54,288 nt of DNA from Pilasporangium apinafurcum (taxonomy: Eukaryota; Oomycota; Peronosporomycetes; Pythiales; Pythiaceae): assembly GCA_001600495.1 (NCBI GenBank), contig BCKE01000014.1:579151-633438 (forward strand), read 5' to 3'. Under the pieces are notes generated by a model, which saw only the letters and a list, made by a program, of their open reading frames with translations, did not search any database and was not told the DNA's origin. Shown piece after piece: positions 9,005-14,016 of this stretch. A program made the translations under genes and the position numbers. Position 1 is the first letter of the stretch; each line of letters begins with the position of its first letter.

Positions 9005-12000
9005 ATGGCGGCTGAGGTGACGGCCACGTGCTTCCAGGACGATGAATTCGCTGCACTAAGACTACTCATTTTGCCACATGCTGGTGGATCCACACGCGCG
9101 TTCGCGCTTGAGTGGAGCAAGAGCTTCAAAGCCGCTGGGCTGAGCGTCGAAGTGTGGGGGGTCGACTGGCACTGGCAGCAGCCAACCACCGACAATGGTC
9201 ATACGCATCCACTACAAGCGGATGCAACGTGGCTTGTGGACGCGATCCGCGCGGCGCTGTCCGGGCGATTTTTCGACAAACCCTACGTTGTGATCGGCCA
9301 TAGCCTGGGGGCGCACGTGGCGCTGGCACTCGTACATTCACTCAAAACACATGGATTCGCATTACCACGTCATGTGTTTCTCTCTGGTGCAGCTGGACCC
9401 TCGCAATGGACGTTGTTTGATGAGAAGAACGTCTTGCAACAAGATGAACAGCTACTCAAGCTGTTGCACGAATGGAACGGCACCGACGCGGAGCTACTTG
9501 CCATTCCGGAACAAAAAGCGACAGTGCTGGCGCAGCTACGCGCGGATCTGTGCATCCACAATAGTCTCGTCCGCTGGTATGAACAAGCTACTGTCACTGT
9601 TTTGATCCCTGCGGGAGTGTCAGTGTATGGAGGCAAGGCAGACCCAGCAGTGCCAGTCGAACAATTGGAAGAATGGCAGAAAGTAATTGATAGCAACGGC
9701 AAACACACGTTCGAAGTGGAGACATTTGTTGGTGGGCATTTTTATCTGACAAACTCACCAGGTCAAGAAGCATTTCTCAGCAAATTCATCGCGAAATTGC
9801 AGGTCATAACGGTACAGAACGCATTGGAATCGCATGCACAAATTGAAAAATGGAATTCAAAACAAGCTTCCTATCCAGCAGATAAATGTTTGCATGATCT
9901 GTTTGCTGACGCGGTGAAAAGATCGCCTGACGCTATTGCTGTGTACTATGAAACTCAAACGCTGACGTTTCGTGAAGTGGACGAGCGAAGCCAACGATTG
10001 GCCGACTACCTCTACCACGTAGGCGTGCGGCCAAACCAGATCACGGGCATCTTTATGGAACACTGTATTGAGTTTGTGATCGCGTACATTGCTGCTTTAA
10101 AGGCTGGTGGCGCGTACATGCCGCTGGAGATTGTTTATCCGCCTGATTTGCTCTCTCGAGTCATGGAAGAATCCAAACCGATCATTATTCTGACTAAGAA
10201 AACTTTTCGAGGTCGACTCCCGGGGTGGCAATTAGCATTTAACTTGGACGCCAACTGGCTGGACGAACTACATGCTCAAAAAATCCCACCGATGCCAGCT
10301 GATCGAACAAAAACCCATCCAGACGACCTGGCGTATGTCGTCATGTCTTCAGGCACAACAGGTATACCCAAAGGGATCTGCTGTCCACATCGAGGCGCTG
10401 TCCACTCGTACAATTGGCGGCTTGTCAACTGTCCGTTTATTCCTAATGATCGCGTGGCGAGTCATGTGTTTTTTGTATGGGAATTGCTGCGGCCGATGCT
10501 GGGCAACACGCCGCTTTACGTCATCCCTGATGATACCATCTATGATCCTGTGAAACTTGTGGCCTACATCGCGCAGCACGCTATCACGCGGATTCTCTTC
10601 ACGCCGTCGCTGCTACAGCTGGTGCTGGACACGTGCACGTCCGACGTATTGCTTACCTCGCTGAAAACGTTGCGACTCGTGTGGCTCTGTGGTGAAGTTG
10701 TGACCATTGAACTCCGTGATCGATGGGTCAAGCTGTTCCCGGATTGTGAGCTTCAAAATCTCTACAGTGTTTCTGAATGTCATGATGCTTCAGCGGTCGA
10801 TCTTGCACACATGAGTGCCTTTGATAATTCGCTTTCAACTAAATACGCATCCTGTGGGAAAGTCATGCCCAACGTCCGCGCTTACGTGCTTGATGACAAC
10901 TATCAACCTGTGACTATTGGCGTCCCAGGTGAGTTGTACATTGGCGGTCCATGTCTCGCCATCGGCTACCTTAATCGACCGGAACAAACCGCGCAACGCT
11001 TTCTAGAGAACGTGGTTCCTGGTGAACGCGTCTACAAGACCGGTGATCGCGCGCGGTTCCTGCCGAACGGCCACCTGGAACTTATCGGTCGCTGTGACTT
11101 TATGGTCAAGATCCGCGGCTATAGCGTCGTACTGGGCGCTGTTGAGTCGGCATTGGCGCAACATCCGCTCGTGTCAACAGCAGTGGTACTGACTGAGGGT
11201 GATGAAGGGCAGGACAAACGTCTCGTGGCCTACATTGTTCCAGACAATTGGGAGAAAGTGCCAAGCATCGCCAGTCTTCGTGAGTTTTTGAAGGAAAAAT
11301 TGCCACACTACGCTATCCCATCGGTGTTTGTGCAGCTTGATGCGCTGCCGATCAACAGTGCGAGTGGAAAACTGGATCGGAAGAAAATGCCATCGGTTGA
11401 ACAGGCGAAACGTCTGCGCAGTGAATCGGTTGATCTTACTGTGGACCAAATCCATTTGCCTCAAACCAAGACAGAAGAACAGCTGGCTATGATATGGGTT
11501 GACTTACTACGACTGGAAAATGACAAATGCATCAACCGCAAAGCGAGTTTCTTTGATGTCGGTGGCCACAGTTTACTTGCTACGCGTTTGGTATCCAGCA
11601 TTCGAGACACATTTGACGTGCATTTAACGCTTGCGGACATTCTCTCTGCTCCGGAGTTGGAGGCTATCGCTGCACGTATTGATGGTGTACTTGGTCACAT
11701 GACTATTGAGGATGATAAAGCGAGTGCGAAGCTTGTTCTGCCACTTGAAGCGCTTCTTGATGCTTCCATCTATCCTGCAGCAACCAGAAAGTCTGGCTAC
11801 AGTCGGTACCGCGTAGAAATGATGGGTCGACCACCACGCAACGTGCTGTTGACTGGTGTCACGGGCTTTTTGGGTGTTCACTTGCTGTACGCGCTGCTCA
11901 AAGACACAGAATGCACAGTGTTTTGTCTCGTTCGCGCTTCTGACGAAGCCACGGGAAGCGATCGCATCCACGCGGTACTGAAATCATTTGGACTCTTTGA

Positions 12001-12949
12001 TGAATTGATGGATTACCATGTGGATGAACGTGTTGTGCCCATCGTTGGTGATCTGGCGCAGCCGCTTTTGGGACTCGATGATAGTACATTCAAGATGCTT
12101 GCAACCGAAGTGGATGCGATTGTACACAACGGCGCGGAAGTCAACCTCGTCAAGCCTTATGCTGCCCTGAAGAGTACCAATGTACTGGGTACACAGGAGG
12201 TTCTGCGTTTGGCCGTCACGAATGGACTGGCCAAGACACGCGTTAAACCCGTGCACTACATCTCCACGAACGGTGTTTTCCCTTCGACGTTCCCTGAAAC
12301 GAAGTTGCTCGAAACAGCGGATTTGACGGAGATCTCGGATGCACTGGAAAACGGCTACGCGCAAAGCAAGTGGGTAGCCGAGCAGTTGTGTCTAGAAGCG
12401 CGTCAACGGGGCCTTCCAGTGTCGGTCTTGCGGCCAGGTAATATGGCACCATCGTTCAAAACTGGTCAATGGAACGCGAGCGATTTCATCTACTTATTGC
12501 TGAAAGGCTGCTGGGCAGTTGATGCCGTTCCTGACCGTGCGGACTGGAACTTTGACATGACGCCTGTGGACTTTGCCGCCAAAGCTATCGTGCATTTCGC
12601 GGCACTGCACCCTGTGAACGCCTTGGGACAGACGCTTCACATCCAGAACCCAGCGCTACCTGTCAAAGGAGATATTTTCCTCCGTACATTTACGCAGGCA
12701 GCAAAAGAAGCAAAGGGAAAATCGTTGGAGGTGGTGAGCTATGAGAACTGGAAGCAGAAACTTGAGGCGCACAAGGCGAATAGTATCGACGTCGAGAAGC
12801 TGCTAGCTGGACTGGAGGCGTTTGAAGTGTATCTTCAGAGCGATAAAGTGTTTGACTGTAGCCTCGCAACGGAACTCCTGCAGACAACACCGATCACTTG
12901 CCCATCGGTGGATGTGGAGCTCCTCAAGACATATGTGAGCCAGTGGTGA
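9005..12949 (+). CDS. NRPS-like thioesterase-adenylation-carrier-reductase enzyme
   Basis: A single 1314-aa exon. Residues of about 18-260 are a type II thioesterase-like alpha/beta hydrolase: LPHAGGS near the start, GHSLGAH with nucleophile Ser100, and probable Asp213 and His245. Residues of about 275-810 are an adenylation domain with A3 (SSGTTGIPKG, about 446), A5 (NLYSVSE), A7 (YKTGDRARF), A8 (KIRGYSVVLGAVE) and A10 (SGKLDRKK, about 785). A phosphopantetheine carrier follows (FFDVGGHSLL, Ser856). Residues of about 935-1314 are a thioester reductase with the NADPH loop GVTGFLG (951-957) and catalytic Tyr1118/Lys1122 in YAQSK. Known chemistry of these domains predicts that an acid is adenylated, loaded on the carrier and released reductively as an aldehyde or alcohol. 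The thioesterase would edit misloaded carriers or hydrolyse the product. There is no condensation domain, so one building block is expected. It needs a phosphopantetheinyl transferase, which is not in this window. The LYS2 family shares A-T-R but not the N-terminal hydrolase. The substrate is unknown. Confidence 0.93.
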   Translation: MAAEVTATCFQDDEFAALRLLILPHAGGSTRAFALEWSKSFKAAGLSVEVWGVDWHWQQPTTDNGHTHPLQADATWLVDAIRAALSGRFFDKPYVVIGHSLGAHVALALVHSLKTHGFALPRHVFLSGAAGPSQWTLFDEKNVLQQDEQLLKLLHEWNGTDAELLAIPEQKATVLAQLRADLCIHNSLVRWYEQATVTVLIPAGVSVYGGKADPAVPVEQLEEWQKVIDSNGKHTFEVETFVGGHFYLTNSPGQEAFLSKFIAKLQVITVQNALESHAQIEKWNSKQASYPADKCLHDLFADAVKRSPDAIAVYYETQTLTFREVDERSQRLADYLYHVGVRPNQITGIFMEHCIEFVIAYIAALKAGGAYMPLEIVYPPDLLSRVMEESKPIIILTKKTFRGRLPGWQLAFNLDANWLDELHAQKIPPMPADRTKTHPDDLAYVVMSSGTTGIPKGICCPHRGAVHSYNWRLVNCPFIPNDRVASHVFFVWELLRPMLGNTPLYVIPDDTIYDPVKLVAYIAQHAITRILFTPSLLQLVLDTCTSDVLLTSLKTLRLVWLCGEVVTIELRDRWVKLFPDCELQNLYSVSECHDASAVDLAHMSAFDNSLSTKYASCGKVMPNVRAYVLDDNYQPVTIGVPGELYIGGPCLAIGYLNRPEQTAQRFLENVVPGERVYKTGDRARFLPNGHLELIGRCDFMVKIRGYSVVLGAVESALAQHPLVSTAVVLTEGDEGQDKRLVAYIVPDNWEKVPSIASLREFLKEKLPHYAIPSVFVQLDALPINSASGKLDRKKMPSVEQAKRLRSESVDLTVDQIHLPQTKTEEQLAMIWVDLLRLENDKCINRKASFFDVGGHSLLATRLVSSIRDTFDVHLTLADILSAPELEAIAARIDGVLGHMTIEDDKASAKLVLPLEALLDASIYPAATRKSGYSRYRVEMMGRPPRNVLLTGVTGFLGVHLLYALLKDTECTVFCLVRASDEATGSDRIHAVLKSFGLFDELMDYHVDERVVPIVGDLAQPLLGLDDSTFKMLATEVDAIVHNGAEVNLVKPYAALKSTNVLGTQEVLRLAVTNGLAKTRVKPVHYISTNGVFPSTFPETKLLETADLTEISDALENGYAQSKWVAEQLCLEARQRGLPVSVLRPGNMAPSFKTGQWNASDFIYLLLKGCWAVDAVPDRADWNFDMTPVDFAAKAIVHFAALHPVNALGQTLHIQNPALPVKGDIFLRTFTQAAKEAKGKSLEVVSYENWKQKLEAHKANSIDVEKLLAGLEAFEVYLQSDKVFDCSLATELLQTTPITCPSVDVELLKTYVSQW

Positions 12950-13116: not shown

Positions 13117-14016
13117 ATGGCGCTGGTGTTAGATGGCAAAGTGTGCGGCAAAGCGATCGAGGAAGAAGTGAAAGTGAAGATCGCTGCGCTCAGCGTCACA
13201 CCAAAGATCGCTTTGCTGCTCGTCGGCACGAATTCCGATTCAAAGACGTATGTGAAAATTAAAAAAAACGCCTGCACGCGCGTTGGCATCACCGCCGACA
13301 TTGAAGAAATTGACGCAGCAATCACGTTTGATGACCTCAAAGCGTTGATCGAGCGGCTGAACAACGACGCAAGTGTCCATGGCATTCTGCTTCAATTGCC
13401 ATTGCCGGAGCATCTGCAGCCAAAAGAGGAGGAGCTACTGGAGACCATTCGGCCACAGAAGGATATCGACGGGCTCCATTCTGAACATTTCTTCCAACTG
13501 GGCAAGAAGAAGAAAGAGACGACAGAAACAGAACAAGTGGAGCAGTCTCTTCACCTGCAGCCATGCACCCCTGCAGGCTGTCTGGAGATTTTGGTGCGCA
13601 ACAACATTGATGTAGCTGGGAAGGATGTCGTGGTGGTCGGTCGCGGCCAGCTGGTGGGGCTACCACTATCGCTAATCCTTTTGCAACAGAACGCCACCGT
13701 TACGACCTGCCACTCGCATACAAAAGACCTGGAAGACAAAGTCAAACGCGCTGACATTGTGTTTGTGGGCACGGGGCAACCAGAACTGATCAAAGGCGAA
13801 TGGATCAAAGAAGGGGCCGTGGTGGTGGACGTTGGGATCAACTACGTCGATGATGCCACTTCCAAAAAAGGTTACAAGATCTTGGGTGATGTTGAGTATG
13901 AAGCCGCAAAAGCACGCGCCTCTGCGATCACACCTGTGCCAGGCGGCATTGGCCCGATGACCGTCGCCATGCTGCTCAAAAATATTGTGGCATGTGCCAC
14001 GTTTGCTTCACAATAA
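13117..14016 (+). CDS. folD: Methylenetetrahydrofolate dehydrogenase/cyclohydrolase (FolD type)
   Basis: A single exon of 299 aa. The family interconverts 5,10-methylene-, methenyl- and 10-formyl-tetrahydrofolate using NAD(P). Seen here: substrate motif with Tyr45 and Lys49 in TYVKIK, HGILLQLPLPEHL, PQKDIDGLH, PCTPAGCLEIL, the dinucleotide loop VVVGRGQLVGLPLS, and the C-terminal ITPVPGGIGPMTVAMLL. The length matches stand-alone bifunctional FolD; the formate-THF ligase domain of animal and fungal C1-synthases is absent. The start at 13117 is the first in-frame ATG after the stop at 13027-13029. A charged insert (KKKKETTETEQVEQ) follows the DGLH segment where most family members have a short NxG loop. 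No clear mitochondrial presequence is present from this start, so it is probably cytosolic. It lies 167 bp downstream of the synthetase on the same strand, and no functional link is implied. Confidence 0.95.
   Translation: MALVLDGKVCGKAIEEEVKVKIAALSVTPKIALLLVGTNSDSKTYVKIKKNACTRVGITADIEEIDAAITFDDLKALIERLNNDASVHGILLQLPLPEHLQPKEEELLETIRPQKDIDGLHSEHFFQLGKKKKETTETEQVEQSLHLQPCTPAGCLEILVRNNIDVAGKDVVVVGRGQLVGLPLSLILLQQNATVTTCHSHTKDLEDKVKRADIVFVGTGQPELIKGEWIKEGAVVVDVGINYVDDATSKKGYKILGDVEYEAAKARASAITPVPGGIGPMTVAMLLKNIVACATFASQ

What the first reader, a model, noticed from the sequence alone, without database searches (positions are those of the whole stretch)
9005..12949. Thioesterase fused in front of an adenylation-carrier-reductase module in an oomycete-like genome
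All four domains keep their key residues in one uninterrupted 1314-aa frame. A-T-R proteins are known (LYS2, carboxylic acid reductases, stand-alone NRPS-like reductases), but an N-terminal type II thioesterase on the same chain is not an arrangement I know. It would combine an editing or hydrolytic function with reductive release. The gene has no intron over 3.9 kb among intron-containing neighbours, which could mean acquisition from bacteria. It may make an uncharacterised aldehyde or alcohol metabolite.
Basis: partly seen in the sequence, partly recalled or inferred. Interest (0 to 1): 0.75.

Follow-up and report, generated by a model that had tools for sequence, protein, structure and literature searches.

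The report
Betaine-reductase-like enzyme with fused thioesterase
This oomycete gene encodes one long enzyme that probably takes up glycine betaine (an osmolyte), or a close relative of it, and reduces it towards choline; by sequence it belongs with the fungal and animal betaine-reductase family but carries an extra proofreading-type domain at its front.

Summary
In detail: window 9005-12949 is one 1314-aa frame, TE-A-T-R, with its catalytic residues present. It is not a one-off: 24 of the 120 listed homologues are TE-A-T-Rs at 65-75% identity (14 with oomycete names), and 7 more distant ones carry the TE too. The A domain lacks the loop with Asp235 that binds alpha-amino groups and has a short VFFVWE loop plus an acidic residue (D594), as published for zwitterion-activating A domains (fungal ATRR, glycine betaine; BurA-A, DMSP). 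Pocket and tree place it with ATRR-type proteins, not LYS2 or CAR. It lacks ATRR's second reductase R2, but the same genome encodes a free-standing eight-exon R2-like SDR (61% to a fungal R2). In the class of Rubrobacter, 27 of 39 genomes match an A-T-R of this family (4 only in part); an R2-like SDR lies downstream in 11 of 28 loci and a betaine-type transporter upstream in 6. Best reading: a glycine-betaine to betaine-aldehyde reductase with a built-in RifR-like editing thioesterase, R2 acting in trans. Substrate, TE role and partnership with the SDR are inferred. Recent acquisition from bacteria is not supported.

The parts
9005..12949 (+). TE-A-T-R gene, 1314 aa, single frame
9059..9796 (+). 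Type II-like thioesterase domain (aa 19-264); triad S100 (9302-9304), D213 (9641-9643), H245 (9737-9739)
   Evidence: PF00975 64 bits; RifR 3fla E 2e-20; triad
9797..9901 (+). TE-A linker (aa 265-299), holding most of the conserved NSK-x-x-YPxDKCLHDLF motif
   Evidence: alignment
9902..11371 (+). Adenylation domain (aa 300-789)
   Evidence: PF00501 and PF13193
10460..10483 (+). Shortened A4 loop SHVFFVWE (aa 486-493), in place of the Asp235 loop of amino-acid-activating A domains
   Evidence: hallmark as described in PMC7496086
10784..10786 (+). Acidic pocket residue D594 (GrsA position 330), proposed to face the cationic head group
   Evidence: compare D606 of BurA-A in PMC7496086 (alignment to BurA not made here)
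11480..11680 (+). Thiolation (carrier) domain (aa 826-892), phosphopantetheine Ser856 (11570-11572)
   Evidence: PF00550; invariant S856
11849..12940 (+). Thioester reductase domain (aa 949-1312); Y1118 and K1122 at 12356-12370
   Evidence: PF07993, TIGR01746 297.5 bits over cut-off 213.35; invariant residues

Best explanation
The protein is a member of the ATRR-type, zwitterion-activating A-T-R family. Its A domain binds glycine betaine (or, less likely, another quaternary-ammonium or sulfonium acid) in a pocket without Asp235, with aromatic residues and D594 facing the cation, adenylates it with ATP and loads it on Ser856. The reductase releases it with NAD(P)H as betaine aldehyde. The N-terminal RifR-like thioesterase is an in-cis editing domain that clears wrong or stalled acyl groups from the carrier. 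A separate SDR of the R2 type, encoded elsewhere in the genome, would reduce betaine aldehyde to choline. Shown here: architecture, intact residues, pocket residues, family placement, presence of the SDR and of choline kinase matches. Inferred: substrate, product, pocket geometry, TE role, partnership with the SDR.
For: (1) Pocket code --WLWCLDAK. In some searches family A domains (oomycetes, diatoms, animals, fungi, unnamed) lack positions 235/236 and keep W239, while 31 A domains of 17 bacterial-type proteins keep D235. The V331 version (107 rows) is shared by most of the oomycete rows and by animal A-T-R-R proteins including Steinernema P0206. [quoted passage not shown] BurA-A prefers DMSP. 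(3) Trees: the family is one side of a branch at SH-aLRT 100 against bacterial C-A-T-R proteins. (4) Bacterial context: in the class of Rubrobacter taiwanensis 27 of 39 genomes match an A-T-R of the family, 23 of them nearly full length; an SDR at 50% or more to animal R2 lies downstream on the same strand in 11 of 28 loci and a BCCT betaine/carnitine/choline transporter upstream on the same strand in 6 of 28, flanks at most about 1.5 kb; L019, another actinomycete, has both. (5) Own genome: an R2-like SDR, 258 aa in 8 exons with GT-AG introns, 61% to the R2 of P0239; the plasmid SDRs compared are 42-47%; with R2s at 100/99 against six plasmid SDRs. (6) TE: nearest solved relative RifR, a type II editing TE (function recalled); triad kept in 25 of 25 oomycete rows. 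(7) Choline kinase and PPTase matches are present.
Against: No biochemical test. The sequence of the characterised A. nidulans ATRR was not in hand: 'fungal ATRR' here means fungal A-T-R-SDR proteins of the same pocket type. The code differs from theirs at 301, 322, 330 and 331, so another cationic acid is possible. No BCCT match in this genome. The A-T-R and the stand-alone SDR have different nearest kin: the A-T-R lies with protist A-T-Rs, the SDR with fungal, Rubrobacter and five unnamed R2s, so the SDR need not be the natural partner. The AU test does not reject the SDR lying outside all R2s (p 0.19; 0.057 with Rubrobacter R2s added). In 13 of 28 Rubrobacter-class loci neither neighbour was seen (several are cut by contig ends). 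In four other eukaryotic rows the TE has lost catalytic residues, so the TE is not needed everywhere.
Confidence: 0.65

Rival explanations
1. Same family, different zwitterion: the enzyme activates DMSP, carnitine, another betaine or an N-methylated acid and makes the matching aldehyde or alcohol, perhaps a specialised metabolite.
For: D at position 330, an acidic residue D606 being described for the DMSP-using BurA-A, where the fungal rows have E; family members fused to PKS exist (L020, L021); no BCCT match in the genome.
Against: The code matches animal A-T-R-R proteins, and the nematode MiATRR relieved betaine growth inhibition in yeast (PMC11050029; abstract, introduction, sections 2.2 and 3 read; its sequence was not compared here); an R2-like SDR and choline kinase matches are present; the two bacterial TE-A-T-PKS codes differ (--WLYNDDVK).
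Confidence: 0.2
2. The TE is not an editor but a release or accessory hydrolase: it competes with the reductase to give the acid back, or cleaves a small ester or thioester substrate to feed the A domain.
For: Fused in cis, unlike typical stand-alone type II TEs (recalled); full triad kept; TE evolves faster than the rest (P0001 to P0002: 57% over aa 1-290; 81% over the A-T-R region).
Against: Nearest solved relatives are RifR, 4xjv (medium-chain S-acyl FAS thioesterase), 3qmv and the surfactin TE subunit 2k2q, which I recall as type II TEs; the reductase already provides release.
Confidence: 0.25
3. LYS2-like aminoadipate reductase or CAR-like general carboxylic acid reductase.
For: Some database entries are named L-aminoadipate-semialdehyde dehydrogenase; TIGR03443 matches at 435.6 bits.
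Against: Far under the curated cut-offs (TIGR03443 1030.1; carboxyl_red NF041592 217.2 against 1300); Asp235 loop absent.
Confidence: 0.03

Closest known systems
Fungal ATRR, NRPS-like glycine betaine reductase (Hai, Huang and Tang 2019, doi 10.1073/pnas.1903282116; paper not held; known here through PMC11050029 and PMC7496086)
   Same: Against fungal A-T-R-SDR proteins such as P0204, P0224, P0239, P0240: A4 loop without Asp235, W239/L278/W299, acidic residue at 330, A-T-R1 order, one clade
   Different: No C-terminal R2 on the same chain; extra N-terminal TE; pocket positions 301, 322, 330 and 331 differ
Animal A-T-R-R proteins (P0105, P0150 'glycine betaine reductase ATRR-like', nematode P0206; MiATRR of PMC11050029 named only)
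   Same: Pocket code of these three rows differs from P0001 by one residue (V331 for A)
   Different: A-T-R1-R2, no TE
BurA-A (DMSP-activating A domain, PMC7496086; named only, sequence not fetched) and bacterial TE-A-T-KS-AT-KR-T proteins L020 and L021
   Same: Zwitterion-type pocket; L020 has an intact TE directly before the A domain
   Different: Chain goes on to a PKS instead of a reductase; code --WLYNDDVK in L020 and L021
Type II thioesterases (RifR 3fla)
   Same: Sequence family and catalytic triad
   Different: Fused in cis to A-T-R instead of free-standing
LYS2 and CAR
   Same: A-T-R order
   Different: Pocket, curated scores, extra TE

Membership tests
ATRR glycine betaine reductase | Shortened A4 loop without Asp235, acidic pocket residue | tested here: met
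   hallmark from PMC7496086
ATRR glycine betaine reductase | Thioester reductase R1 after a carrier domain, catalytic residues present | tested here: met
ATRR glycine betaine reductase | Second reductase R2 (YdfG-like SDR) on the same chain | tested here: not met
   The chain ends after R1; an R2-like SDR is encoded elsewhere
ATRR glycine betaine reductase | Same clade in the A-T(-R) trees as fungal and animal A-T-R-R proteins | tested here: met
   SH-aLRT 100, (quick trees; A. nidulans ATRR itself not included)
ATRR glycine betaine reductase | Reduces glycine betaine to choline | not testable with these tools
   needs enzymology
Type II (editing) thioesterase | Sequence relationship to RifR-type TEs and Ser-Asp-His triad | tested here: met
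Type II (editing) thioesterase | Separate protein acting in trans | tested here: not met
   one frame with A-T-R
Type II (editing) thioesterase | Hydrolyses misloaded carrier-bound acyl groups | not testable with these tools
   needs assay
LYS2 aminoadipate reductase (TIGR03443) | Curated score cut-off | tested here: not met
   435.6 against 1030.1 bits
Carboxylic acid reductase (NF041592) | Curated score cut-off | tested here: not met
   217.2 against 1300 bits

The most novel reading that the evidence does not exclude
TE-A-T is an old loading and proofreading module for permanently charged osmolyte acids (betaine, DMSP), shared by bacteria and protists and coupled in different lineages to a reductase (oomycetes and other protists) or to a polyketide synthase (L020, L021). 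The TE guards a carrier that would otherwise be blocked by ordinary acyl groups. Oomycetes use it with a free-standing R2 to turn glycine betaine into choline, and Rubrobacter and its kin run the same split reaction from a transporter-reductase operon, contrary to the published view that these reductases are exclusive to eukaryotes.
Probability: 0.35. Interest if true: 0.75.

Novelty: new variant of a known kind. Interest (0 to 1): 0.58.

Why it matters
It gives a testable function to an enzyme found in many oomycetes (Phytophthora, Globisporangium, Peronospora, Bremia and others among the listed homologues) and carried in databases under names such as linear gramicidin synthase. If right, these organisms can convert glycine betaine, which many crops accumulate under stress (PMC11050029, discussion read), into choline for membranes. 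The bacterial BCCT / A-T-R / R2 gene neighbourhoods found here would extend betaine reductases beyond eukaryotes and supply simple split systems in which the two reductions can be assayed apart.

Tried and rejected
Considered and rejected: LYS2 and CAR identity (curated scores far below cut-off); a C-terminal R2 hidden in the ORF (none); recent bacterial acquisition; a local betaine gene cluster: of 10 neighbouring ORFs scanned, 4 had Pfam matches (FolD, a protein kinase, a phosphatase/PTEN-C2-like protein, a CH-like domain) and 6 had none.

Inconclusive: TE-only relationships. TEs of distant members are about as close to RifR as to each other, so one origin of the TE-A fusion is not shown. 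The search with the TE region alone gave 23 hits, 20 already and 3 PKSs; it missed the distant TE-A-T-Rs and several oomycete ones, so it is not a census.

Rows dropped: 31 of the 240 protein rows have no readable A3 motif or were set aside and are not in the pocket counts. In the SDR trees P0206 and P0234 gave no SDR start and three own-genome SDR loci (L098, L101, L102) gave no readable frame; four own-genome SDRs and L017's upstream SDR were in the tree (two of them very long branches) and were left out; of ten Rubrobacter-type loci tried, eight gave an R2 row (L122 and L142 did not).

Literature (10 of 10 searches). 'NRPS-like/oomycete/thioester reductase' 2 papers, 'thioesterase/adenylation/thioester reductase/Phytophthora' 5, 'TE-A-T-R' 0, 'Phytophthora/glycine betaine/choline/reductase' 38 of which 15 were listed: no listed title is on this enzyme; only listings were seen for these four. 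Passages on dinoflagellate BurA-like transcripts in PMC9027781 were seen and not used. The library holds open-licence papers only, so absence from print is not shown.

Structure prediction was not run: the chain exceeds 1200 aa and the domain families are clear from sequence. Pocket side-chain geometry was therefore not modelled.
Full report
Observation. The frame 9005-12949 (+) is a single 1314-aa ORF with TE, A, T and R domains by Pfam. Catalytic residues are intact: S100-D213-H245 in the TE, and K789, S856, Y1118 and K1122, invariant in 13 diverse relatives. In the 36.5-Mb assembly the other seven matches are weak A-domain stretches (E 6e-12 or worse), so one copy was found.

Distribution. 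One search found 3585 homologues among 7990 scored candidates and listed 120. P0002-P0025 (24 rows, 65-75% identity, 94-100% of the query covered) carry TE, A, T and R domains; 14 have oomycete names (Globisporangium, Nothophytophthora, five Phytophthora, two Peronospora, Bremia, Plasmopara, Peronosclerospora, Lagenidium, Pythium brassicae), and I count the 10 unnamed ones as oomycete by identity. P0010 is a gene model merged with a biotin carboxylase. Seven more distant listed rows carry PF00975 (P0030, P0032, P0033, P0035, P0037, P0038, P0045), P0035 without the catalytic Ser. P0033 bears a GEMP01 transcript-type identifier and a complete ORF, so the fusion is seen on what looks like a transcript in that lineage. 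P0030 bears the prefix Nk52, which I recall as the ichthyosporean Chromosphaera perkinsii; P0045 is named Triparma laevis. Diatom, Mesostigma and other rows have A-T-R without an annotated TE. In P0034, P0035, P0044 and P0036 the TE region is degenerate or mostly gone. The TE was thus lost repeatedly or gained more than once; the tree cannot tell gain from loss.

Substrate pocket. Aligned to GrsA PheA, P0001 has code --WLWCLDAK: positions 235/236 are deleted and the A4 motif reads SHVFFVWE. Of 223 A domains in that alignment, 192 have this deletion and W239 (107 --WLWCLDVK, 18 the exact code of P0001; position 330 is D in 157 and E in 35), and 31 from 17 bacterial-type proteins keep D235 (recount; 31 protein rows could not be read or were set aside). 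A search with the R2 region of P0105 brought in fungal A-T-R-SDR proteins; the 17 with fungal names read --WLWN, then C or V, E, and I, V or T. The BurA paper (PMC7496086, passages) says of ATRR-A and BurA-A that the D235 loop is replaced by a shorter hydrophobic loop and that both have an acidic residue placed for a positively charged group. This describes the present pocket, with D594 at position 330. Neither the A. nidulans ATRR nor BurA was aligned here.

Phylogeny. On A-T-R1 (62 rows, quick ML tree) the family is separated from bacterial C-A-T-R at SH-aLRT 100; the TE and A-T-R rows of protist type form one group of 27 at 99, oomycetes at 100. On the A-T region with seven bacterial relatives added (69 rows) that group has 95, the five Rubrobacter-type proteins group with fungal rows at 97, and L020/L021 fall on the animal/protist side at 87. 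These are quick trees without bootstrap. They do not support a recent bacterial donor for the oomycete gene.

Bacterial relatives. In the class of G004 (Rubrobacter taiwanensis), 27 of 39 genomes match at E<=1e-100, 23 nearly full length and 4 in part. In the 28 loci from these 27 genomes, with flanks of at most about 1.5 kb and several cut by contig ends, an SDR at 50% or more to animal R2 lies downstream on the same strand in 11, a BCCT transporter upstream on the same strand in 6, both in 2, either in 15, neither in 13. The 23 readable A domains have 15 --WLWNVEVK, 3 close variants, 1 --WMMNVEVK and 4 --WQWCLEVK. PMC11050029 reports, citing Hai et al., that atrr genes are exclusive to eukaryotes (introduction read); these bacterial genes look like a split counterpart, untested biochemically.

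R2 in trans. Searching the own genome with R2 (51 SDR matches) gave two stretches at 66-67% on C10. Joining eight exons with GT-AG introns gives a 258-aa SDR, 61% identical to the Trichoderma R2 P0239 and 42-47% to six plasmid SDRs. In the plasmid searches all 5000 counted records lie under 60% and the best listed is 47% (capped, plasmids only). It groups with R2s against the plasmid SDRs at 100/99, and within them beside five unnamed R2s at 95/84. AU tests against placing it outside all R2s give p 0.19 and 0.057, so its R2 origin is likely, not proven, and its nearest kin differ from those of the A-T-R. Choline kinase matches, betA-like exons below the curated cut-off, three PPTase-domain matches and no BCCT match complete the context.

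Thioesterase. The nearest solved relative is RifR (E 2e-20; for P0030 1e-43). The triad is kept in 32 of 37 aligned rows (one of the five exceptions, L021, is cut by its contig) and in 25 of 25 oomycete rows. The simplest role is editing of the carrier. That a domain this variable between genera keeps its triad in all these rows argues for a working enzyme; no assay was found.

Verdict. A real, conserved enzyme: a variant of the ATRR family with an N-terminal type II TE and without the in-chain R2. Strict ATRR membership fails on R2; working like ATRR up to the aldehyde is well supported by sequence. Glycine betaine is the most likely substrate.

Noticed in passing
L121, L124, L019: Rubrobacter-class genomes and another actinomycete carry a BCCT transporter, A-T-R and R2-like SDR side by side on one strand: a possible bacterial betaine-to-choline operon.
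   Followed up: partly
L020:4785-12440 and L021:3-6917: TE-A-T-KS-AT-KR-T proteins with a zwitterion-type A domain in Piscicoccus intestinalis and an Aestuariivirgaceae MAG; products unknown.
   Followed up: partly
P0034, P0035, P0044, P0036; P0035, P0038, P0045: In the first four the TE region has lost catalytic residues or most of its length while A-T-R is kept; the last three have two carrier-type Ser motifs in a row.
   Followed up: partly
P0010 and P0029 (Phytophthora lilii, P. cactorum): Database gene models that run TE-A-T-R into a biotin carboxylase; probably merged neighbouring genes. No such neighbour among the 10 window ORFs scanned.
   Followed up: no
G000:C90:25434-27250: Exons matching choline dehydrogenase betA (328, 232 and 94 bits, each under the curated cut-off of the whole model): the organism may oxidise choline as well.
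   Followed up: no
window 13120-14016 (+): The gene next to the TE-A-T-R encodes a FolD-type methylenetetrahydrofolate dehydrogenase/cyclohydrolase.
   Followed up: no
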